From Marinomonas primoryensis (GTDB taxonomy: Bacteria > Pseudomonadota > Gammaproteobacteria > Pseudomonadales > Marinomonadaceae): a stretch of DNA of 64,000 bases. The position numbers and the translations under genes are program-made. Below the pieces are notes generated by a model. It was not told the origin of the DNA. It ran no database searches and was given only the letters and a program-made list of their open reading frames with translations. Where the stretch lies: positions 1,846,001 through 1,910,000 of the forward strand of contig NZ_CP054301.1 in the NCBI RefSeq assembly GCF_013372285.1. The letters are read 5' to 3'. How positions within the stretch are numbered: position 1 is the first letter of the stretch; each line of letters starts with the position of its first letter. Positions 2,329-12,818 of this stretch are shown here, piece by piece.

Positions 2329-3366
2329 TTATCCTTTTTGTTGATGATGTTTGACCAATTCAATGGCCTCTAATAATACATTTATCTTTGCGTCGGCTTT
2401 ATGACCATTTTCAGAAAGATAACGACGGAACTGTTTGCCGCCTGCTTCTCCTTGAAAAATACCCAAAATATGTCGGGTGAGGTGCAATAATCGCTCGCCT
2501 TCTTCTAGCTTACGCTCCACGTACGGAACAAAAGCGTCTAACGCTTCATAGCGATCATGAACAAGCGCTTGACCGCCAAACAACTGCTCATCAACTTGGC
2601 TTAGTATCCAAGGATTATGATAAGCCTCACGTCCAACCATAACGCCATCGACGTGTGCTAATTGTTCTTGGCATTCTTCTAAGGTTTTTATGCCACCGTT
2701 TAAGATGATTTCAAGGTCTGGGAAATCTTTCTTCAACTGATGCACATAATGATATTTCAATGGTGGTACTTCACGGTTCTCTTTCGGGCTCAAGCCTTGC
2801 AGAATGGCATTACGCGCGTGAACAATAAAGGTCGTGATGCCAGTAGTGGCTATGTCACCAACAAAATCGCGCACCACGCTGTATTCTTCTTGCTCATCCA
2901 AACCAATACGGTGTTTGATTGTCACCGGAATACTGCACGCATCTTGCATCGCACGCATAGCGTCTTTCACTTTGTCAGGGTGAGCCATCAAACAGGCGCC
3001 GATCAAACTGTTTTGAACTCGATCGCTTGGGCAACCAACGTTTAGATTTACTTCATCGAAGCCTGCCTGTTCAGCCATTTTCGCGCATTTTCCTAACGCA
3101 ACGGCGTCTGATCCACCAAGCTGTAACGCAATAGGGTGCTCGCACTCATCGTATCGTAAGAATCTTTCAGGATGATTACCTTGCAACAAAGCGCCTGTGG
3201 TCACCATCTCGGTATAAAGCAGCGTGTTTTTGCTAAGCGTTCTAGCAAAGACTCGGTAATCTGAAGTCGTCCAATCCATCATGGGTGCAATGCTAAAGCG
3301 CCTATCTACTGTATCCCTTGAATTTAAAGGCTTTGGCTCTATTTTTGATGTTTTTTCTATTAGCAT
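2329..3366 (-). CDS. dusA: tRNA-dihydrouridine(20/20a) synthase
   Basis: This flavoenzyme reduces U20/U20a in the tRNA D-loop. Motifs seen: SIAPMMDWT (27-33), the FMN-barrel strand [10 protein letters not shown], and [19 protein letters not shown] with catalytic Cys112; IKHRIGLD and GGIKTLEE follow. The length of 345 aa is normal. The N-terminal 22 residues before RRFSIAP are not conserved in the family. dusA 5' ends are a documented integration site for phages and islands, and a prophage remnant begins about 250 bp upstream of this start. First gene of the dusA-tal operon. Confidence 0.96.
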
Positions 3367-3616
3367 TTAATCGTCTTTTTGGGGTCGTTTTAAGGGTGTT
3401 TTGGTATTACAGTGCTAAAGAAATGCTAAAATTAGTTTTGTAGCATTTTTTATAACACCCTCTAAAAAAGGCATTTTCATGCGTTCTCGGTTGTTACGTT
3501 TGATTATGTCATAAAATTACAAGATTTCTAAGGGACAAGTGAGTCTAGTTTCAGATTAACGGGAAAAACAACCTTAAAGTGTACAGATAAGAGTAAATAG
3601 GGCGTCATCAGTTTGT
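3367..3616. other. intergenic junction between dusA and the prophage remnant
   Basis: No gene is visible in these 250 bp. The part next to dusA is AT-rich and must hold the minus-strand dusA promoter. Somewhere before about 3640 the sequence changes to C-rich phage codon style. I could not find a convincing att-type direct repeat between here and the far end of the island near 12.54 kb. Confidence 0.5.
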
Positions 3617-5356
3617 TTGATTGAAACAATGTGTTGTCTTATTAGGAGTGCCATAGCTAAGAAGCAAGACGGCATTGCCGACATCGTCACCGCCGCAGGG
3701 CAATCCGGCATCGAAAAAAGTCAACTGCTCCAGTTTGCTGAATCCGCCACCAAAATGAGCGTCGCGTGGGACGTATCGGCAGAAGAGGCCGGTTCCACCC
3801 TCGCCACATGGCGCGCGGCCATGGGACTCACCCAAAAGAACGCCCTAGACCTCGCCGACGCCACCAACTACCTAAGCAACAACATGAACGCCAAGGCAAA
3901 GGACATTGCCGCCGTCATGGTGCGCCAAGGCTCCACCGCCATGGGGCGCATCGGCTTCAACGCCGAAGAACTGGCCGACATGATGCAACAAGACGCCCAA
4001 GGCACTCTTGTAGAAGTCATGCGCGGCCTAAAAGACGTCAACGCCACAGACCAAGGCGCGGTGATTTCGCAACTCTTTGGGGAAGAAGTAAAAGGCGCCG
4101 TCGCCAAACTCGTCACCACACTGGACGACGACAAAAACGGCCTCGTAGCCGCCTTTGCCAAAGTCGCCAACCAAGCTGATCGTACCAACAGCGTCAACGA
4201 CGAATACGCCAACCGCGCCGCCACCCGTGGCCACAAACTCGCCATGCTCGGCGCCAAATTCGACCGCATGACCATCGTACTGGGCGACCGACTCTTACCC
4301 GTGCTCGACGCCGTGTTACCGCCGCTCATGTCCGTGGTGGACAGCGTGGCCGACTTTGCCGAAGCCAACCCACAACTTGCTTTCGGATTACTTGGCGTGG
4401 CCGCCGCCATCGCCGTGGTCAAAGCCGGTGCCATCGCCTTTAAACTCGCCAAACTCACCTTGGGTAACGGGCGCGATCGCTTCAACCTCGGCAAAACCAA
4501 ACTCACCAGCACCACCGACCAAACCACCCAAAGCGCCAACCGAGCATCACGCTCCCTCGATAGACTCAACCGCAAACTAAACGGACTCGGCGCAGGCGCG
4601 GGTTATGGAGGAATAGGAGGAAAAAGACGTGGTCGAGCAGGAGCAGGAAGAAAGGGAGGAACAAGGGGAAAGACACTAGGAAACAGTGAGCGACACAGTC
4701 GAATTGGTAACCGACTCGCAGGTCTAAGAGGTTATGAAGATCAGATTTCAGACCGCAACAACCCAACCAGACGCACCAGCGCAAGCGGCCGATTTGGCAA
4801 ATTTGGAAAACTCGGTGCCTTAAAAGGCGCAGGGCGATTCTTTCGGCCACTGGACATGGCCATGCAAGGTGTAAGCCTTGCCTCTGCCATGTCAGGCGGC
4901 AGCGGAACCGAAATAGGCGCAACCGCAGGCGACATGGTAGGGGGAATGGGTGGTGCCGCCGCTGGCGGATTAGCCGGAGCCGCCATAGGTTCCGTCGTGC
5001 CCATTATTGGCACCGCCATTGGGGGCATTGTCGGCTCCATCGCAGGCGGCATGGGTGGTGGCGCATTAGGAGAATGGATCGGCAGTAACATAGGCGGTTG
5101 GTTTGAAGACGACAAAACCGACCAACCCGCACCAGACGCCATCGCAAAGCAAAGCCAACAGCTACAAAACAACAACAAAAGCATCACCTTCGCGCCCGTA
5201 ATCCACCTAACACCGACAGGCAACCCAAGTTACGACCAACAAGTCAGTGACCAAGTAATAGAAAGACTCAAAGCCGAATTCACACAGGGAATGATGGGCA
5301 ACATGGACGTGGCGACAATGGCCGATGGGAGATTGACGGATACGCGGGGGAGTTAA
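3617..5356 (+). pseudogene. phage tail tape-measure protein, 5'-truncated
   Basis: The open frame encodes 579 aa. From about residue 10 it matches the tape-measure proteins of contractile-tail (P2/TP901-like) phages: DIVTAAGQSGIEKSQLLQFA, EAGSTLATWRAAMGL, LADATNYLSNNMNAKAKDIA and a C-terminal half with long Gly/Ala stretches (GGMGGAAAGGLAGAAIGS). Full proteins normally have several hundred residues before this point. The first residues, MIETMCCLIR, are not phage-like and probably arise from the deletion junction. C-ending codons differ strongly from dusA. I call it a remnant; the start has no clear ribosome site. Confidence 0.85.
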
Positions 5357-5606
5357 GAGTTAGACCGTTTATTGTTTGATTGCCCAAAATTAGGCTCAGT
5401 TTGTCTAAATAATAATTAATTCAATGCTTAATCTTTTGAGTTAAATATAAAAAAACGACTACAATCAATCGGTAAGAGTTCATGGTGTCGCTCTTTTTTA
5501 GGAATTAACGCCCTGTTTTTTCTAATAAAGAGATGTGATATTGTGCATAATCACTATTAAAATATTAAGCCTTGCTAGCCTCGGTATTTAATTTAAGGAT
5601 GAATAT
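5357..5606. promoter_or_regulatory. leader of the PHP-ATPase gene
   Basis: AT-rich spacer without a gene. It holds the 18-mer CACTATTAAAATATTAAG at 5552-5569, which recurs with one difference at 10555-10572, in front of another cargo gene of the island. The TATTAAAAT part could be a promoter -10 region. This suggests shared expression signals for island cargo. Confidence 0.45.
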
Positions 5607-8258
5607 ATGAATGTAGATTTTGAACACACTATGGCAAAATTCTGGAAGTGCGCATTACAAGTAAACCCTGCAAGTTATATAAAGTACCGTGGTGAAAATC
5701 AGAATGTTTCAGAAGATGATTATAATCAGAAACTATTAGAAGTCTGCCTTGAGGAATCTATAAAAGTTGTAGGGATAGCCGATCATGGTAATGTTGATTC
5801 TATTGAGAAAATCAAAGAAACGTTTAATTCTCAAGGAGTCATTGTATTTCCGGGATTTGAAATTGCATCTAGTGAAAAAATACATTTGGTTTGCTTATAT
5901 CCAGAAGACACAAGTCTTCAAACTTTAAATAATTACTTATACGAGTTTGATATTGATACTTCTAATGGTACAAATCCATCAACTAAAAGTGCAGACTTTA
6001 TTTTGTCAACTGTTATAGGTAAAGGTGGCTTTGTGTATGCTGCGCATTGCACAGATGATAGCGGAGTTTTAAAACAAAAATTAAACAATATTTGGAAAAA
6101 CCCGAATTTATATGCTGCACAAATCCCTACTTCATTAGATGCACTTAAAGAGCAAGGTGATCAAGCAAATTACCAGATTATTCTAAATAAAAATCCTGAT
6201 TATAAACGAGATAAAAAAATTGCTATTATAAATGCTAAAGATATAGAAGATCCTGAAACATTAAGGAGAGAAAATGCGACTTGTTTGGTGAAAATGTCAA
6301 AACCTTGTTTTTCGTCATTTAAATTAGCGTTTTCAGATTCTGAATCCCGTGTTCGCCTCAACTCTGATATTAAAGAAAAATATTACTCTAGAATAGAGTC
6401 TGTAAGGTTTGTTGGTGGATTTCTCAATGGAATTCATATCAACTATTCCGAGCATTTAAATGCTTTAATAGGCGGTAGAGGAACAGGTAAATCGACTTTA
6501 ATAGAGTCAATTCGTTATGTGTTAAATATTGAACCTATTAGTAATGAAACAAAAGCACAACACCTTAAAGTTATAAAGCAGAATCTTAGTTCAGGGTTTG
6601 CTGAGTTGACTGTTAAATCAGCAGTAAAACATGGAAAATTATATAAAATATCAAGACGCTATGGTGAATCCCCGATAGTAAAAGATGAAAGTGGATCTGT
6701 TTCTACTTTTTCTCCTAAAGACTTATTGCCTGATATTGAAATCTTTGGTCAAAATGAAATTCACGAAATTGCTAAAGAATCAAGTGAACAATTAAAAGTA
6801 GTAGAGCGATTTCTAAATACAGATAAAATTGAGAAAGAGTCAGGTATTTCAAAAGTTAAAGAATTGTTAGTAACAACAAGAAATAATATATTTGATTTAA
6901 CATCTAATGTTTCTAGTTTGGAATCTGATGTAGAAGACTTGAAGGCTCACGAGGAAGATGAAAATAGATATAAAGAGCTTGGAATAGATCAAAAATTGAA
7001 ACTACTACCAATCGTTGAGTCAGAAAGAAGTACTTTTAAAATCGTTTTAAACAAAATGGACGCGTTAAAGGAAGCACTAAAAGAGCTCTCTGAATCTATC
7101 CCATGCGGTGACTTTATAACTGAGGAATTGATTAAGGAATTTCCCGATAAAAAAATATTTGAAAATTCTAAATTGGCGTTATTTGAATTAAAAAACAATA
7201 TCAATCTATCTATTGATAAAATGGAGATAGATTCAGAAAATTCTCAGAAGAAGATAGATCTACTTGATAAAGAGCTTCAAGAAAGCATAGAGAAACAAGA
7301 AGACTCCATCAGTAAAGAGTTTAAAAAGTTGGCCCCTGTTGAAGGTTTAACTGGAAAACAAATTGGTGAGCAATATCGGGATCTAATTAAAAATATCGAG
7401 AGATTAAAACCCAAGCGTGCGGAACTTTTAATTCAACAAGGTAAACTGAAAAAAGAAATAGTTACAAGAAAGGATCTACTGGCTGAGTTGTCCGAGAAAA
7501 AAACAAACAGAGCTACTGCCTTTGAACAGGGCGTAAAAAGGCTGAATAGAAAATTAAAGGGTAATATAAAGGTAAATTACTCAGCAGAAAGAAATAGACT
7601 TGGATTAATAAAGCTTATTGTAAGCTATCGTTTACCTGATGTTGCTGAGGGAAGACTTTCTTGGATGAAAGGAGTAGAGGAGTTCTCGGCCCCTCTACTA
7701 GCAGAAACTATTAAGAAAGGACCGGCTGCTTTATTAGAAAAAAATTGGGGAATGACTTCTACTACCGCTGATAGATTATCAAAAATCAGCAATAAACAAA
7801 TAATGGAAATTGAAGAGTTTAAGATCGATGATCTGGTTAGCATTGAGTTGAATGTTTCGAGTAGTGAAGAGCCTTTATATAAAAAACTTGATTCATTATC
7901 AACAGGTCAACAGTGCACAGCATTATTGCACATGCTCTTACTTGATAACCAAGACCCTCTACTTTTGGATCAACCAGAAGATAATCTAGACAATGCATTT
8001 ATAGCAGAGCGAATTGTTACTCAGGTGCGAGATGCTAAACTAACTAGACAGTTTATTTTTGCTACTCATAACGCAAACATCCCTGTTTTTGGTGACGCGG
8101 AGTGGATTGGAGTTTTGGAGTCAACGAATGAAAATGCAACTTTGCCTATTCAGAATCAAGGCTCAATAGATCAGCCAAATATCCAGAATCTTGCTGCCAA
8201 AATTCTTGAAGGTGGCGAGGATGCATTTAATAGAAGAAAAGAAAAATATGGATTTTAA
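5607..8258 (+). CDS. PHP-domain/SMC-like ATPase (TrlF-type), candidate defence effector
   Basis: The product is 883 aa. Residues 10-150 resemble a PHP phosphoesterase fold: GIADHGNVDS (57-65), VFPGFEI (80-86), EKIHLVCL, and AAHC (145-148). The usual HxH metal motif at the start is replaced by KCALQVNPASY, so metal-dependent catalysis is doubtful; as I recall, relatives have a similar CDLQV form. Walker A GGRGTGKST is at 289-297, a long charged coiled-coil region runs about 435-690, the ABC signature LSTGQQ is at 764-769, Walker B LLLDQPED at 785-792, and an ATHN H-loop at 819-822. This is the architecture of SMC/Rad50-like ATPases coupled to a nuclease-type domain, often seen in phage-defence islands. 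Very AT-rich, unlike its neighbours, so horizontally acquired. The defence role is inference. Confidence 0.8.
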   Translation: MNVDFEHTMAKFWKCALQVNPASYIKYRGENQNVSEDDYNQKLLEVCLEESIKVVGIADHGNVDSIEKIKETFNSQGVIVFPGFEIASSEKIHLVCLYPEDTSLQTLNNYLYEFDIDTSNGTNPSTKSADFILSTVIGKGGFVYAAHCTDDSGVLKQKLNNIWKNPNLYAAQIPTSLDALKEQGDQANYQIILNKNPDYKRDKKIAIINAKDIEDPETLRRENATCLVKMSKPCFSSFKLAFSDSESRVRLNSDIKEKYYSRIESVRFVGGFLNGIHINYSEHLNALIGGRGTGKSTLIESIRYVLNIEPISNETKAQHLKVIKQNLSSGFAELTVKSAVKHGKLYKISRRYGESPIVKDESGSVSTFSPKDLLPDIEIFGQNEIHEIAKESSEQLKVVERFLNTDKIEKESGISKVKELLVTTRNNIFDLTSNVSSLESDVEDLKAHEEDENRYKELGIDQKLKLLPIVESERSTFKIVLNKMDALKEALKELSESIPCGDFITEELIKEFPDKKIFENSKLALFELKNNINLSIDKMEIDSENSQKKIDLLDKELQESIEKQEDSISKEFKKLAPVEGLTGKQIGEQYRDLIKNIERLKPKRAELLIQQGKLKKEIVTRKDLLAELSEKKTNRATAFEQGVKRLNRKLKGNIKVNYSAERNRLGLIKLIVSYRLPDVAEGRLSWMKGVEEFSAPLLAETIKKGPAALLEKNWGMTSTTADRLSKISNKQIMEIEEFKIDDLVSIELNVSSSEEPLYKKLDSLSTGQQCTALLHMLLLDNQDPLLLDQPEDNLDNAFIAERIVTQVRDAKLTRQFIFATHNANIPVFGDAEWIGVLESTNENATLPIQNQGSIDQPNIQNLAAKILEGGEDAFNRRKEKYGF

Positions 8259-8677
8259 TAGGGGCGAAAAAAATTTTAAAATGAAAAAACAGCTGTCTTT
8301 AATGAGGAATAGAAATTGAATAAAAATATTTTGGCCTTACATATAGGGTATCTCATGATTTCTATAAATTAAATTGATTTGCTTACCCATATAATCCGAA
8401 TTGATATTCTAAAATATTCTAAAATATTCAAGGGGTCATAGATTCAAGGGGTCAGAGTCGTTGAATTGCTGACCCCTTGAATTGAATGGGGTACACACCT
8501 AAAAAATCAGTGTTTCAAGGTTCTTAGCATGTGTGTCCTGATAAGGCTGTCCATAAAACATTTACCATCGATTTTGAACAGGTAGAATCCGTTAGAACAA
8601 TAAAATTTGAATCGTAGGTATAAACATAGCCAACCATTAGTTTCCACTTAATGAGGCGTCAGAGTTCAAGGAGAGAT
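8259..8677. other. AT-rich intergenic region with REP-like palindrome
   Basis: No gene is visible. It contains a tandem TTCTAAAATA repeat (about 8407-8428) and the palindrome annotated separately. Further right, a lone GTTAGAA at about 8588 resembles an integron R-box, but on its own it is weak. The promoter of the following gene must lie here. Confidence 0.4.
8427..8482. repeat. REP-like inverted repeat, 14-bp perfect arms
   Basis: ATTCAAGGGGTCAG (8442-8455) pairs perfectly with CTGACCCCTTGAAT (8469-8482) around a 13-nt loop. A third copy of the left arm, ending CATAG, sits just before it at about 8427. Such GGGGTC palindromes are typical of REP/MITE-type elements. No REP-associated transposase is in the window. 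Confidence 0.6.
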
Positions 8678-9136
8678 ATGAGAATTCCAACGGATCTAGA
8701 AATATTAAATACGATTTATCGTATATATCATTCTGACTTTGTTGCTTTCGAAAGAGGTGATGGGTCTCGGGATTCGAAAATCTATGTCCCGATCGATTGC
8801 AAGAAGGTTGCAGGCGAGCTGAAAGTTGATTCTGATATTGTATTTGGCCGCTTGTATTACCATCTAGAGAAGCAGTACGGTTACAAACAGGATAATGGAA
8901 GTAATGTTCATTTCTTTGCTTTCAAAGTTGGAAATGATTCAAAGTGTGTAAATTTCCCTCTTATGACTTCCATTTTGGCTGGCTTACGCCAAGAGAAAAA
9001 GAAGTTTTGGATAGGGACAGCGGTTGCTGTTCTTGCTTTGATTGTTTCAACAGTCTCATTAACTGTTTCAGTTACACAATTGGGAAGCTCTAACAAGTCA
9101 ATGCAGCCGACCGCTGAAGCGTCGCTGATTGAATAG
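8678..9136 (+). CDS. unknown protein with C-terminal membrane anchor, possible integron-type cassette gene
   Basis: 152 aa from an ATG with AAGGAGAG at good spacing; an upstream ATG at 8651 is less likely. Residues 1-105 are soluble and unrecognised. The segment PIDCKKVAGELKVDSDIVFG looks like a small helical, possibly winged-helix, unit. One hydrophobic helix (about 110-132) follows a KKK stretch, predicting a tail anchor with the bulk in the cytosol. The last residues, SMQPTAEASLIE, are encoded by an attC-like palindrome, so the stop lies inside that site, as is common for integron cassettes. Function unknown. Confidence 0.6.
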   Translation: MRIPTDLEILNTIYRIYHSDFVAFERGDGSRDSKIYVPIDCKKVAGELKVDSDIVFGRLYYHLEKQYGYKQDNGSNVHFFAFKVGNDSKCVNFPLMTSILAGLRQEKKKFWIGTAVAVLALIVSTVSLTVSVTQLGSSNKSMQPTAEASLIE

Positions 9137-9147
9137 TTAACTCTTCC
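9082..9147. other. attC-like recombination site (degenerate)
   Basis: An imperfect palindrome covers the 3' end of the preceding gene. The outer boxes are TCTAAC and GTTAAC, close to the integron R'' and R' boxes. The inner arms AATGCAGCCGACC and GCGTCGCTGATT pair if single G, C and C bases bulge on one side, the extrahelical-base pattern of real attC sites. The R' box GTTAACT has one mismatch to GTTRRRY. No integrase gene is visible in the window. Confidence 0.45.
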
Positions 9148-9327
9148 CATCCACTCAAACAAGTCATGGTTTGCTTTTCACCATTGACCCCACCCGAATC
9201 TTGATCTAGTATTTCTCTTGCACTGGCAAATTCCAGTGCTCGGGATTGGCGTTCCGATTAACAGCGGATATGAATGCCGCGTAATGCGGTTTTTTTATGT
9301 CTGGCGTATAGCTTTCTTGTTATCGAA
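9148..9327. other. spacer with terminator hairpin
   Basis: No gene. A hairpin GCCGC-GTAAT-GCGGT followed by seven T (about 9276-9296) is a plausible terminator for the preceding gene. Confidence 0.5.
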
Positions 9328-9694
9328 TTTGGGGTCAGATGAAAAATAGTACCTAACCTTCATCTACTCCAAACAGCTCCACGAGCAAAACCAACCACAG
9401 ACAACTTAGCGCTAGCGGAAACCGACAAGTACCAACTTCAACAACATCGTCAAATCCATGCAGATACAAAGCGACCCCGTCGTCGTTCCATCAAAAGAAC
9501 TCATCGACCTAATCCAAGCCGTCCGCACTTTCCTAACAAAAAAAGCAACAGCAAATAGCACGACTGCAAACACCTGACTGGGTAAACGACAATATCACCC
9601 GCGTCAAAGACTACGCCCAACGCAACTTCGTCGACTTCTAAGCCGCAAGCAACTAAAGCCCGATGTGGGCTTTAGTTGTTGTTTAGGCTGGTAG
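9328..9694 (+). repeat. island repeat copy 1 (hairpin, phage gene 3' remnant, terminator)
   Basis: First of three direct repeats (others at 10109 and 10936). It opens with an imperfect hairpin (arms 9328-9343 and 9359-9373). It continues with a degraded coding piece that reads, in one frame, LALAET, later VVVPSKELIDLIQAVRTFL and finally DWVNDNITRVKDYAQRNF before a stop. It ends with the terminator AACTAAAGCCC/GGGCTTTAGTT (9651-9677). This copy lost the SYSLQGKQLL segment and about 25 bases near 9570. Codon style matches the tape-measure remnant, so the source is probably a phage gene 3' end; the protein family is not recognised. Confidence 0.8.
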
Positions 9695-9747
9695 TGATTT
9701 AATATCAATAAATCTTCAAATGAGCATGTGGACTATTAGGCTGTTAT

Positions 9748-10107
9748 ATGTACTTGAATATGAATCGAAACTTAGTTAGATCGACAGCAATCGGTATTTT
9801 TATGGGATTATCCATTGCCTTAATTAATATGCAAAATTTAGAGTATGGGATTTTAATAGCAATTTTAATTTGCTTAGTTTCAGGTGTTCTTTCTGCTCAG
9901 ATTGAGGAGTATGCTCGGCTCTATGCATTATTTAGTAGCTTAGTAAGCTTCCCCTTTTTTGTATTTGCTAACGGTTTTAATGACGGTTTCACTTACTTTA
10001 TCGGCGCTTTATTCGTATATGGCACTTTAAGCTTTTCAATAACTTATGGTCTTCAAAATGCTTTTTATAATGGTAAAGCTATCTTTCGTTATTTTTTTAA
10101 AAAGTAG
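9748..10107 (+). CDS. small polytopic membrane protein, island cargo
   Basis: 119 aa with about four hydrophobic helices (roughly 13-29, 33-50, 58-77, 81-102) and a basic tail YFFKK. The family is not recognised. It sits between repeat copies 1 and 2 and is isolated from neighbours by their terminators. Its leader (TATCAATAAAT, then ACTATTAGG just before the start) resembles that of the gene at 10580, implying a shared promoter module. The ribosome site is weak; ATG 9760 is an alternative start. Possible roles include membrane-acting immunity or superinfection exclusion, but nothing in the sequence proves this. Confidence 0.6.
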   Translation: MYLNMNRNLVRSTAIGIFMGLSIALINMQNLEYGILIAILICLVSGVLSAQIEEYARLYALFSSLVSFPFFVFANGFNDGFTYFIGALFVYGTLSFSITYGLQNAFYNGKAIFRYFFKK

Positions 10108-10108
10108 G

Positions 10109-10506
10109 TTTGGAGCAGATGAAAAATAGTACTTAGTTTTTATCTACTCCAAACAGCTCCACGAGCAAAACCAACCACAGACAACCTAGCACTAGCGGAA
10201 ACAGACAGCTATTCCCTCCAAGGAAAGCAACTGCTCAACAACATCGTCAAATCCATGCAGATACAAAGCGACCCCGTCGTCGTTCCATCAAAATAACTCA
10301 TCGACCTAATCCAAGCCGTCCGCACTTTCCTAACAAAAAAAGCAACAGCAAATAGCACGACTAGCTTTTTAATTCAGGTACGCAGACTGGGTAAACGACA
10401 ACATCACCCGCGTCAAAGACTACGCCCAACGCAACTTTGTAGACTTCTAAGCAGCAAACAACTAAAGCCTGCTTAAGTGGGCTTTAGTTGTTGTTTGGAC
10501 TGGTAG
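10109..10506 (+). repeat. island repeat copy 2
   Basis: This is the most complete copy. Hairpin arms TTTGGAGCAGATGAA and ATCTACTCCAAA open it. The phage-type frame reads TDSYSLQGKQLLNNIVKSMQ, then VVVPSK, where a TAA replaces the GAA of the other copies, so it is clearly a pseudogene. DWVNDNITRVKDYAQRNF and a stop follow. The terminator arms are at about 10457-10470 and 10480-10493. An insertion carrying AGCTTTTTAATTCAGG is shared with copy 3 and absent from copy 1. Confidence 0.85.
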
Positions 10507-10579
10507 GAAACGAGAAAGTCTTTTAGTATCAATGAATGTGTAAACGAGAATGCACACTATTAAAATATTAGGTTCAAAT

Positions 10580-10957
10580 ATGGAATACTCAATACCACCA
10601 CTAGGTAAACTGTTCATCAGCTTATTATTGTTTTTGTGCTTTCTTAGCCTTGCTCTAAGCATCATGGCTTTGTTGCAAGGAGATTTAGTAGCGATACTTT
10701 CAGTAGCAGTAAATAGTGCTGTTATTTTTGGGTATTTTCGCCGTACTACATGGTTTTCAACAGCTATTAAGTTTTACTCTGCCATGTTAATTTTGAGTGG
10801 TTCCATGATGTGGCTATCATATTTCATTGGCGGCGAACTCCCCGAGCAAAGTATTGATATAATCCGTAGGTCTGTCATAGCCCTACTAGGATTATTTTTT
10901 ATTTCGTATGTAAATACGTTTGTTAAGCACTTGAATTTGGGGTCAAATGAAAAATAG
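10580..10957 (+). CDS. small polytopic membrane protein, island cargo
   Basis: 125 aa from ATG 10580, preceded by AGG; ATG 10550 in the same frame is possible but lies inside the shared leader. About four hydrophobic helices are seen (roughly 10-30, 34-50, 60-82, 91-112). The family is not recognised, and it shows no obvious similarity to the 119-aa protein at 9748 beyond size and topology. Its last residues, NLGSNEK, and the stop codon come from the first bases of repeat copy 3, so the coding end was created by the junction with the repeat. The leader contains CACTATTAAAATATTAGG, shared with the PHP-ATPase gene. Confidence 0.6.
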   Translation: MEYSIPPLGKLFISLLLFLCFLSLALSIMALLQGDLVAILSVAVNSAVIFGYFRRTTWFSTAIKFYSAMLILSGSMMWLSYFIGGELPEQSIDIIRRSVIALLGLFFISYVNTFVKHLNLGSNEK

Positions 10958-11310
10958 TACCTAGCCTTCATTTACTCCAAACAGCTCCACGAGCAAAACC
11001 AACCACAGACAACTTAGCACTAGCGAAAACAGACAGCTATTCCCTCCAAGGAAGGCAACTGCTCAACAACATCGTTCCATCAAAAGAACTCATCGACCTA
11101 ATCCAAGCCGTCCGCACTTTCCTAACAAAAAAAGCAACAGCAAATAGCACGACTAGCTTTTTAATTCAGCTTTCTAATTCAGGTAAGTCAGACTGGGTAA
11201 ACGACAACATCACCCGCGTCAAAGACTACGCCCAACGTAACTTCACAGACCTCTAAGCAACAAGCCTTTTCAAGTAACAAAAGCAAAGCCCGCCGATGTG
11301 GGCTTTTTAT
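10936..11310 (+). repeat. island repeat copy 3
   Basis: Opens with hairpin arms at 10936-10951 and 10967-10981. It carries the same phage gene remnant, but a deletion removes the part between AACATCGT and TCCATCAAAA. DWVNDNITRVKDYAQRNF is followed by TDL and a stop. A duplicated TTAATTCAG tract is seen near 11160-11185. The terminator is AAAGCCC/GGGCTTTTT at about 11285-11307. It is followed by higBA instead of the leader found after copies 1 and 2. Confidence 0.8.
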
Positions 11311-11344
11311 TGATTGTTGATGCGCACCACGCTACACTTATTTT

Positions 11345-11623
11345 ATGATCAAAACATTCAAACACAAAGGCCTTAAAAAATACTTCGAAACAGGAAGCGT
11401 TTCCGGTATTCAAGCAAAGCATCAGCGTAAAATACGTATGCAACTTGCTGCGATCGATACCGCCCAAGAGATTGAGGATATCAATTTACCCGGTTTTAAC
11501 TTGCATCCGTTAAAGGGAAACCGAGATGGGATTTGGTCTATTACTGTGAACGGGAATTGGCGTATTACTTTCGAATTTGTTGATGGTAATGCTTACATTC
11601 TCAACTATGAGGACTATCACTAA
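11345..11623 (+). CDS. higB: HigB/RelE-superfamily toxin
   Basis: The 92-aa protein matches the HigB (GraT-like) branch of RelE-fold mRNA interferases, which cut mRNA at the ribosome. Signature stretches are FKHKGLKKYFETGS, LPGFNLHPLKGNRDGIWSI and GNWRITFEF. It is toxin-first, with the antitoxin ATG overlapping its stop by one base (TAATG), the usual higBA order. It is placed directly after repeat copy 3, and may stabilise the island. Autoregulation by HigA at the short upstream region is expected from the family. Confidence 0.88.
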   Translation: MIKTFKHKGLKKYFETGSVSGIQAKHQRKIRMQLAAIDTAQEIEDINLPGFNLHPLKGNRDGIWSITVNGNWRITFEFVDGNAYILNYEDYH

Positions 11624-11916
11624 TGAATATGCACAACCCGCCACACCCAGGCGAATTTATTTACGATGTTTATCTTGAGCCAGCGGGTTTTAGTTGCCGC
11701 TTTTTGGCCAAGCAATTGGATGTCGCTTCGTCCACGTTAAGCCGTGTGCTGAAAGGGCAGAGCGCTGTGTCGCCTGAAATGGCATTGCGTTTGTCTAAAG
11801 CGCTTGGCAGAACACCAGAGAGCTGGCTGGCCATGCAGGATGCCTATGATCTTTGGCAGGCTAAGCAACATCTAAATTTAGCGAATGTTCACCCTGTCAA
11901 TTTTGCAGTGGCCTAG
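11623..11916 (+). CDS. higA: HigA antitoxin, XRE-type
   Basis: The 97-aa protein has a central helix-turn-helix (about residues 23-65: FLAKQLDVASSTLSRVLKGQ, then SPEMALRLSKALG) and the HigA N-terminal phrase PPHPGEFIYDVYL. It neutralises HigB and normally represses its own operon. It is co-translated with higB through the overlapping stop/start. Confidence 0.9.
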   Translation: MNMHNPPHPGEFIYDVYLEPAGFSCRFLAKQLDVASSTLSRVLKGQSAVSPEMALRLSKALGRTPESWLAMQDAYDLWQAKQHLNLANVHPVNFAVA

Positions 11917-12016
11917 ACCATTAAGTCAGATCAAGTTTTTTGACTGGCCTAATGGTCTTCCTCCTAACCTAAATATCGCTTTTCTCTGAATTTGGGGCCA
12001 GATACCGTCTTAAACT

Positions 12017-12345
12017 TCAAGCGTTGAAAACTTTATTTTCGTCAAAAGGCTCATCACTTTTAAGTACACCGTAGATGATATGAATGAGCTTACGCATCGC
12101 TGCGCCGATGATCTCCATTTTTGCTTTGCCTTTTTCACTAAGTCGATCTTTCAGCCCTTTAAGAGCTGGATTGTATTTTAGTGCCACCATTGCTGGAAGT
12201 AAAAGCGATTTGCGTAAATGTGCTGAGCCTATCTTTGACATTGCTGCCCGACCATTTATTGAGGTTCCCGATTGGTACTCACGAGGTGCAACCCCACAAA
12301 ATGAGGCTAACTTCTTAGCACTATCAAAATTGTGAATAGCCGAAA
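12017..12345 (-). pseudogene. IS110-family transposase, C-terminal fragment
   Basis: About 110 codons of the IS116/IS110/IS902 C-terminal domain are present: FDSAKKLASFCGVAPREYQSG, GRAAMSKIGSAHLRKSLL and GAAMRKLIHIIYGVLKS. The N-terminal DEDD catalytic domain is missing. The frame stays open upstream to 12493, but that part is only the antisense of the phage D-gene scrap, so the IS sequence ends near 12345. The element is inactive. Confidence 0.85.
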
Positions 12346-12538
12346 AATAAGGCAACAGCCAAGGCACCAACGTCACACTTGATTTACCAGGCAACCCCAA
12401 ACTCGTCGCAGAAGGCATCCTCACCCTAAACGACACCTTCCCACCCGAAATGAAAGACAACTGGTCCATCGACAGTGTCACCGCAGGGGGCAAAGCAGGG
12501 TATCGGTGTTCTGTGGTGGCCGGTGAGTTGGTTTCATT
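12346..12538 (+). pseudogene. phage late-control protein D, C-terminal scrap
   Basis: On the plus strand the frame from about 12346 reads VTLDLPGNPKLVAEGILTL, then DNWSIDSVTAGGKAGYRCS. This fits the C-terminus of gpD-like baseplate proteins of contractile-tail phages (substrate-like barrel, then a his/gly region). C-rich codons match the tape-measure remnant. Together they bracket the island in the order T then D, as in P2-type tail operons. It continues into AT-rich sequence without a proper stop. Confidence 0.6.
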
Positions 12539-12818
12539 ATGGATAAATGTTTGGTTTTTTTTGTGCGTGATACATCTATTAGATTGATAGAAAAGTGGCT
12601 AATAAATTATTTTTTAAGCTCAGCGATTACTAATGTATCAAGTTCAAAAAGGGAGGTAATGGTTCCTCGACCTGAAAGCGCGTATTGGTGTGAAATAAAA
12701 TGCCAGAAGAAGCGCATGAAAAAGCCAGTATGGATTCCATACTGGCTTAACAATAACCGCCAAGGTATTTTAGGGCGGGGCAGTTAACTTAAAGCAGTTA
12801 ACTTAAGACTGTTTAGTA
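12539..12818. other. intergenic end of the island
   Basis: No convincing gene. An 82-codon open frame (12539-12787) has no ribosome site or family marks and runs into the darP terminator. The sequence is AT-rich and presumably contains the eroded right border of the prophage. Confidence 0.5.
12719..12749 (-). terminator. terminator of the lpt-rpoN-mgtE-darP block
   Basis: 12-bp perfect stem (12723-12734 with 12738-12749, AAGCCAGTATGG) with a 3-nt loop. On the minus strand it is followed by a T-run, about 70 nt after the darP stop. Confidence 0.75.

What the first reader, a model, noticed from the sequence alone, without database searches (positions are those of the whole stretch)
9328..11344. 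Stacked repeat cassettes: terminator-leader-gene modules built from a phage gene end
Three direct repeats (9328-9694, 10109-10506, 10936-11310) carry the same degraded phage gene 3' end, each opening with a hairpin (arms like TTTGGAGTAGATGAA) and closing with a terminator. After copies 1 and 2 comes a related leader (TATCAATRAAT, later CTATTA and ATATG) and then an unrelated small membrane-protein gene; after copy 3 comes higBA. This looks like serial insertion of cargo at one phage position, each time duplicating the insulating terminator/leader, or like a homologous-recombination cassette locus that can gain and lose genes. I know of no named system with this layout.
Basis: partly seen in the sequence, partly recalled or inferred. 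Interest (0 to 1): 0.78.

Follow-up and report, generated by a model that had tools for sequence, protein, structure and literature searches.

The report
Prophage cassette arrays with antirepressor scars
In marine Marinomonas bacteria, copies of the tail end of a viral control gene lie between accessory genes that differ from species to species inside P2-like resident viruses or their remains, and they likely serve as the matching DNA by which these accessory genes, some predicted to be antiviral defences, are swapped.

Summary
The three repeats are copies of the 3' end plus terminator of a phage antirepressor gene (Rha/AntA/KilA-N type). Each opens with a hairpin whose left arm closely resembles the end of a RAYT transposon of the same genome. 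The 367-bp copy matches in 16 of 56 genomes, all of one genus (Marinomonas). In 31 of 35 loci scanned there are 62 matches; 45 of the 49 that reach the terminator have an ORF close behind, and these ORFs fall into 41 clusters. Proviral contigs show two hotspots, between tail genes T and U and after gpD; at the second, the 3' end of gpD plays the same repeated part. Cargo is found in other orders, on the other anchor, and once at 92.5% identity where core genes share 79% (a second pair shows no such excess). The repeat is mosaic. I conclude that this is a homologous-recombination cassette locus for prophage accessory and defence genes: a new variant of mobile phage cassettes and defence hotspots. 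The exchange itself and the promoter role of the leader are inferred. An integron-like or site-specific system is less likely but not excluded.

The parts
3617..5356 (+). truncated tape-measure gene T of a P2-like prophage (remnant next to dusA)
   Evidence: matches residues 288-938 of a 938-aa T protein at 70%; PhageMin_Tail
5607..8258 (+). cargo: PHP/SMC-type ATPase, candidate defence protein (Ppl)
   Evidence: AAA_21 above and SMC_N below cut-off; PADLOC Ppl E 6e-36
8651..9136 (+). cargo of unknown function; C-terminal membrane segment by reading of the sequence only
   Evidence: no family above cut-off
9220..9296 (+). isrK RNA (seqA-like), the 5' control region of an antirepressor gene
   Evidence: RF01394, 55 bits, gathering 50, E 3e-10
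9328..9373 (+). hairpin 1 (RAYT-end-like left arm)
9374..9694 (+). repeat copy 1: antirepressor 3' end (stop 9639-9641) and terminator (9650-9678)
9694..9746 (+). leader A, diverged
   Evidence: 22 bits
9748..10107 (+). cargo: small membrane protein (by reading of the sequence)
   Evidence: three proteins found, no Pfam
10109..10153 (+). hairpin 2
10154..10506 (+). repeat copy 2: antirepressor 3' end (stop 10448-10450) and terminator (10457-10492)
10498..10571 (+). leader A
   Evidence: 73 bits
10936..10981 (+). hairpin 3
10982..11315 (+). repeat copy 3: antirepressor 3' end (stop 11254-11256) and terminator (11285-11306)
11345..11623 (+). cargo: higB toxin gene
   Evidence: PF05015 E 3e-24
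11623..11916 (+). cargo: higA antitoxin gene (helix-turn-helix; name by position and sequence)
   Evidence: HTH_3 E 2e-8
12017..12493 (-). ORF holding an IS110-type transposase fragment
   Evidence: Transposase_20 E 4e-16
12360..12533 (+). 3' end of gpD (residues 280-339), the second anchor gene
   Evidence: 85% identity

Best explanation
The repeats are copies of the 3' end and terminator of a phage antirepressor gene, and in Marinomonas P2-like prophages such copies separate accessory genes that differ from genome to genome, so that they likely work as shared homology at which cassettes are gained, lost and swapped by homologous recombination. Shown: the unit antirepressor 3' end, terminator, often a leader, cargo, then a hairpin that opens the next 3' end; the same design built on the 3' end of gpD at a second hotspot; cargo in permuted order and on the other anchor; a statistical sign of recombination inside the repeats. 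Inferred: each leader is predicted to drive its cargo; the cargo transcript would run through hairpin and 3' end to the borrowed terminator, so that a cassette would be expressed wherever it lands; recombination between arrays of co-resident or co-infecting prophages would exchange cassettes, and recombination within an array would delete them. The hairpin-to-3'-end fusions probably arose when a RAYT-derived hairpin element joined an antirepressor gene and, separately, gpD. In this window the prophage has decayed (T truncated, only an end of gpD left) and the array has likely outlasted it.
For: Repeat identity: two genes typed are Phage_pRha, one AntA, one KilA-N; in 8 loci scanned, 10 of 11 antirepressor ORFs have isrK and 9 of 11 C4 above gathering in front; isrK lies in front of copy 1. 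Variable cargo: 41 clusters among 45 ORFs; 28 of 31 ORFs of 100 aa or more between the first repeat and U are co-oriented. Transfer: window 10151-11075 is 92.5% identical to L024 while neighbouring core genes share 78.9% over 3343 nt. Permutation: repeat then higBA in the window, higA then repeat in L028; L021 and L027 in opposite order; one cargo behind the antirepressor end in L030 and behind a gpD end in L023. Recombination inside the repeat: PHI-like p 0.001 within 30 nt, 0.019 within 50 nt (36 of 62 copies used); nearest neighbours of left and right halves agree in 7 of 35 copies against 16.9 (13-21) for random column halves. Second anchor: gpD 3' copies fused to hairpins. RAYT origin of the left arm.
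Against: No exchange was observed in the act; one genome per species allows no strain comparison. The leader is not supported by the sigma-70 consensus scan (4 promoter-like sites against 4.6 expected), and 22 of 49 right-complete copies have neither leader profile. The hairpin fusion sits at the same place in most left-complete copies, which would also fit a site-specific process. 37 of 41 cargo clusters are single, so direct transfers are few. The copies inside the window are not near-identical, so duplication there is not recent.
Confidence: 0.6

Rival explanations
1. A dedicated site-specific system: circular cassettes (gene 3' end, terminator, leader, cargo, hairpin) would integrate at the hairpin/3'-end boundary, rebuilding the gene and leaving a displaced 3' end, as islands do at tRNA genes.
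For: 25 of 62 copies are left-complete and 21 of these have a hairpin profile hit, with the fusion at the same place in most; two different target genes show the same product; displaced 3' ends also lie behind 2 of 11 other Marinomonas C4 loci, with other gene ends (L163, L170).
Against: Mosaic repeats; no recombinase common to the arrays was noticed by eye in the ORF maps (part was cut); own genome has no integron-integrase match; fused hairpins differ and some are decayed.
Confidence: 0.18
2. Plain tandem duplication and decay: one array arose by unequal crossing over and was inherited, with cargo lost or replaced by ordinary drift.
For: Repeats are degraded and diverged; the third-position share of changes is lower in fragments than in intact genes (0.41 against 0.48, chi-square p 0.006); for one pair the shared cargo is no more similar than the core.
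Against: Cargo mostly unrelated between genomes, permuted order, one cassette more similar than core genes, two anchor genes.
Confidence: 0.07
3. One ordinary mobile element: the repeats are a RAYT-derived MITE that has captured a gene end and transposes.
For: Left arm closely resembles the end of a RAYT in the own genome; solo hairpins exist in several loci.
Against: The sequence is rare: 15 exact sites of a 19-nt core in 8 of 56 genomes, 9 of them in these arrays and 3 more in the same fetched loci; the 367-bp repeat has 3 matches in the own genome, all here; gpD and antirepressor fusions carry different gene ends.
Confidence: 0.08
4. Relics of helper-embedded satellites: isrK, C4 and antirepressor belong to the Bro zone of a PICI-like satellite that inserted in the late operon of its helper.
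For: Satellites with C4/isrK, Bro-type genes and insertion in late genes are described (PMC10111431, abstract and passages).
Against: None of 10 hotspot-1 proteins of L075, L076 and L079 matched an integrase family; [quoted passage not shown] No search for AlpA or primase was made.
Confidence: 0.07

Closest known systems
PeSL (promoter early stem-loop) mobile regulatory cassettes of T4-type phages (Arbiol 2010, Comeau 2014; seen only as reference entries and one passage in PMC4503421 and a reference entry in PMC4177764; the papers themselves are not held; details recalled)
   Same: Repeated terminator plus promoter-like motif between small accessory genes, shuffling, variable cargo
   Different: Here the repeat is about 370 bp and derived from a gene end (antirepressor or gpD) with a hairpin, in P2-like prophages; promoter not shown
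Defence hotspots of P2-like phages and P4 satellites (PMC9122126, passages)
   Same: P2-like phages, small loci between core genes, high turnover, anti-phage systems
   Different: The described E. coli P2 locus is cos-proximal between gpA and gpQ and its exchange pathway was left open; here T-U and after gpD, with repeated anchors at the junctions
Bro zone of PICI satellites: C4/isrK RNAs with domain-swapping Bro-network genes (PMC10111431, passages)
   Same: isrK, C4, and Rha/AntA/KilA-N genes sharing parts
   Different: Here the gene's 3' end is duplicated behind cargo; no integrase noticed in the arrays
Insertion with long target duplication (recalled, Nobusato 2000)
   Same: Gene insertion flanked by a long direct copy of target sequence
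   Different: Serial, two anchor genes, hairpin at each junction, mosaic anchors
Integron cassette arrays (recalled)
   Same: Array of small genes each joined to a constant hairpin-bearing sequence
   Different: No integron integrase found in the own genome, no attC-like boundary seen by eye

Membership tests
Integron cassette array | integron integrase (IntI) in the genome, near the array | tested here: not met
   0 matches in G000 (and in G009, which also has repeats); IntI above cut-off in 20 of 38 genomes searched, none of the listed above-cut-off matches at an array locus fetched here; six array-bearing genomes were not among the 38; one below-cut-off match is a cargo gene in L042
Integron cassette array | attC sites with GTTRRRY core at cassette boundaries | tested here: inconclusive
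   boundaries read by eye: no constant GTTRRRY seen; no attC model was run
PeSL-type mobile regulatory cassette | constant terminator stem-loop between accessory genes | tested here: met
   49 of 62 matches reach the terminator part of the profile; stems
PeSL-type mobile regulatory cassette | constant promoter in the same motif | tested here: inconclusive
   leader A or B behind 27 of 49 copies; no sigma-70 consensus excess in the window; no RNA data
PeSL-type mobile regulatory cassette | T4-type phage genome | tested here: not met
   gpU, tail X, gpD of P2 type
Phage defence hotspot | fixed core-gene neighbours with variable content | tested here: met
   L075-L079 between T and U; 14 loci with a copy upstream of U
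Phage defence hotspot | cargo rich in anti-phage systems | tested here: met
   PADLOC matches at 1e-4 in 11 of 28 different proteins scanned singly (30 scans, two proteins twice), among them GajA/GajB (E 1e-230, 9e-241) and bSEFIR (3e-95); chosen, not random, some matches weak, no background rate measured, activity untested
C4/isrK-controlled antirepressor module | C4 and isrK RNA families in front of an antirepressor-type gene | tested here: met
   10 isrK and 9 C4 above gathering in 8 loci holding 11 antirepressor ORFs; L024 has neither, L021 isrK only; genes typed
RAYT/REP element | hairpin equal to the ends of a Y1_Tnp transposon in the genome | tested here: inconclusive
   left arm closely resembles the left end of one of four Y1_Tnp loci, not letter for letter; the right arm of fused hairpins differs and resembles AntA-type coding sequence
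Helper-embedded PICI | integrase with AlpA at one end | tested here: inconclusive
   no such family among 10 proteins of hotspot 1; the 95-protein Pfam scan showed only 25 of 52 families

The most novel reading that the evidence does not exclude
P2-like prophages carry an integron-like cassette platform without an integrase of its own: the 3' ends of a C4-controlled antirepressor gene and of gpD act as landing pads, and a hairpin derived from a RAYT transposon acts as the cassette end, so that any accessory gene joined to it can be inserted, stacked and expressed at either pad, with the hairpin joined by a transposase or recombinase acting in trans.
Probability: 0.15. Interest if true: 0.86.

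Novelty: new variant of a known kind. Interest (0 to 1): 0.62.

Why it matters
Phage defence hotspots turn over fast, and how their genes are exchanged between conserved phage genes is an open question (stated as such in PMC9122126). Here the junctions keep their history: repeated gene ends, terminators and hairpins would mark past exchanges, in two hotspots of one phage group, so that the pathway can be read from breakpoints and tested in culture. It also offers a way to look for new defence genes: whatever lies between two antirepressor or gpD ends is likely cargo.

Tried and rejected
Integron: disfavoured for the window genome and by reading of the boundaries. Dispersed REP-type MITE as the whole answer: disfavoured because the hairpin core is rare. 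A shared target motif at the antirepressor and gpD fusion points looked promising, but the intended position test did not run, because the gpD pattern was not found in L076; what both points share on inspection is an A-run, so I make no site claim. Hairpin arms pair better with their own partner than with swapped ones (mean -15.6 against -14.3 kcal/mol, p 0.008), but relatedness was not controlled, so I use it only as a hint. Promoter scan of the leader: no excess. Rfam inside the repeats: nothing above threshold; an STnc350 match on the opposite strand at the copy-3 terminator has E 0.1 and lies below its gathering score. Extension to other genera: nine stretches around C4 RNAs in five other genera gave no antirepressor-end repeat, two self-matches of other kinds apart, but my choice of gene there was poor, so this is not a clean negative.

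Literature: in the listings (top 8 to 15 titles and abstract starts each) I saw no description of this layout; only open-licence papers are held. PMC10870725, PMC9122126, PMC4825925 and PMC4503421 were seen as passages, PMC4177764 as one reference entry, PMC10111431 as abstract, outline and passages.

Full report
What was checked. Aligned, they differ by short deletions and insertions. Each begins with a 45-46 nt hairpin and ends at a terminator-like stem, and between copies lie small membrane-protein genes, then higBA (membrane character read from the sequence).

What the repeat is. A genome search with copy 1 matched 16 of 56 genomes, all of one genus out of 22 (a limited number of candidates per genome was scored, so the number is a lower bound). 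Two of the 16, G007 and G028, matched only over the first 22 and 68 nt. In relatives the repeat is the 3' end of longer genes of about 170 to 220 codons. The four typed are two Phage_pRha, one AntA and one KilA-N gene; the KilA-N gene shares the 3' part only weakly (49 bits). In eight loci scanned, 10 of 11 antirepressor ORFs have isrK and 9 of 11 a C4 antisense RNA above gathering score in front; L024 has neither. In the window isrK survives at 9220-9296, just upstream of copy 1. The repeats are therefore scars of an antirepressor module: the gene end and terminator without the front half. Fragments differ from the nearest intact gene with a lower third-position share than intact genes do from each other (0.41 against 0.48, p 0.006; 31 of 45 fragments and 16 of 17 intact copies used), as expected if many are no longer translated.

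The hairpin. Its left arm (TTTGGGGTCAGATGAAAAATAG) closely resembles the left end of a RAYT transposon in the own genome (one of four Y1_Tnp loci), whose right end resembles the other arm of solo hairpins. In the repeats the right arm runs into the antirepressor gene and resembles AntA-type coding sequence there. The element is not scattered: 15 exact matches to a 19-nt core in 8 of 56 genomes, 9 of them in these arrays and 3 more in the same fetched loci.

The leader. Behind the terminator come two kinds of leader: A behind 18 and B behind 9 of 49 right-complete copies; 22 have neither. The 25-nt core of leader A, searched in 56 genomes with up to one mismatch, occurs 12 times, each directly behind a repeat. 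Leader-A-like sequence also follows gpD in L075, L077, L078 and L079. That it is a promoter is a prediction; the consensus scan does not support it.

Variable cargo. After four duplicate loci were dropped there are 62 repeat matches in 31 of 35 loci; 49 reach the terminator, 45 of these have an ORF of 50 aa or more starting within 420 nt, and these ORFs form 41 clusters, 37 of them single. This counts the longest ORF behind each copy, and a few may be spurious. There are 17 chains of two or more copies and 6 of three or more, with a median spacing of 994 nt. Proviral contigs with full-length T, U, X and gpD (L076, L078, L079) place the first hotspot between T and U and a second after gpD. In L023 a tape-measure-like ORF and U are adjacent and the array lies after gpD. 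The second hotspot repeats the design with the gpD 3' end: truncated copies mostly start at residues 253-282 of 339 (296 and 302 in L028 and L031), among them copies behind a full or nearly full gpD in L027, L032, L062 and L079. Ten hairpin fusions in six loci carry gpD sequence.

Shuffling. What lies on either side differs, and the neighbouring core genes share only 78.9% over 3343 nt. A second such comparison, L021 with L027, shows cargo at 89.0% and core at 86.3%, so no clear excess. higA lies after a repeat in the window but before one in L028. Another cargo follows a repeat in L021 and precedes the antirepressor gene in L027. A third sits behind the antirepressor end in L030 and behind a gpD end in L023, the similarity beginning in the leader. 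Inside the repeat, neighbouring sites are more compatible than shuffled sites (p 0.001 within 30 nt, 0.019 within 50 nt, 36 copies), the sign of recombination. Left and right halves share a nearest neighbour in 7 of 35 copies against 16.9 on average for random column halves (range 13-21 in 60 splits).

What the cargo does. PADLOC families match 11 of 28 different cargo proteins scanned singly at 1e-4, some weakly; a scan of 95 proteins together touched 143 families (members with a match not tallied by the tool). The clear ones include a Gabija pair (L076), bSEFIR (L075), DUF4238-Pers (L021) and Ppl (window 5607-8258). Others are toxin-antitoxin genes and proteins without a family. The set was chosen and no background was measured, so 11 of 28 is not an unbiased rate, and no activity is known.

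Mechanism and limits. The evidence favours homologous recombination at shared gene ends, with small, likely self-contained transcription units as the exchanged pieces. It does not show which recombination functions act, nor how the first hairpin-to-gene fusions arose. The same boundary in most left-complete copies, the use of two genes, and displaced ends behind two other antirepressor genes (L163, L170, 2 of 11 further Marinomonas C4 loci) keep a site-specific route open.

Noticed in passing
window 2329-12800: The island lies between dusA and a gene that looks like darP/yjgA (names by reading of the sequence); in several relatives arrays lie between dusA and an endA-like gene.
   Followed up: partly
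window 9220-9296: isrK RNA remains although the front half of its antirepressor gene is gone.
   Followed up: yes
L076 3987-7714: A complete-looking Gabija pair (GajA, GajB) sits between tape measure and antirepressor in a provirus.
   Followed up: partly
L163 about 7007-7190; L170 about 5519-5577 (of the C4-oriented strand): 3' ends of two other KilA-N-like antirepressor genes, unlike the window repeat, are duplicated behind cargo.
   Followed up: partly
L042: A tyrosine-recombinase-like gene and a gene that looks like an IS91-type transposase form the cargo of one cassette; recognised from the sequence, with a below-cut-off integron-integrase profile match to the first.
   Followed up: no
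L042 3585-3800, L023 about 11032-11093 onward: Leader A exists in a long and a short form; the long one holds a near-repeat of TAAACGCGCATGC, deletion between which would give the short form.
   Followed up: no
G049 (another genus of the order): Five C4 RNAs above cut-off and one below it in one genome: many antirepressor modules whose surroundings were not analysed properly.
   Followed up: partly
window 8426-8482: Another inverted repeat (CAAGGGGTCAG..CTGACCCCTTG) of RAYT-like look in front of the cargo gene at 8651.
   Followed up: no
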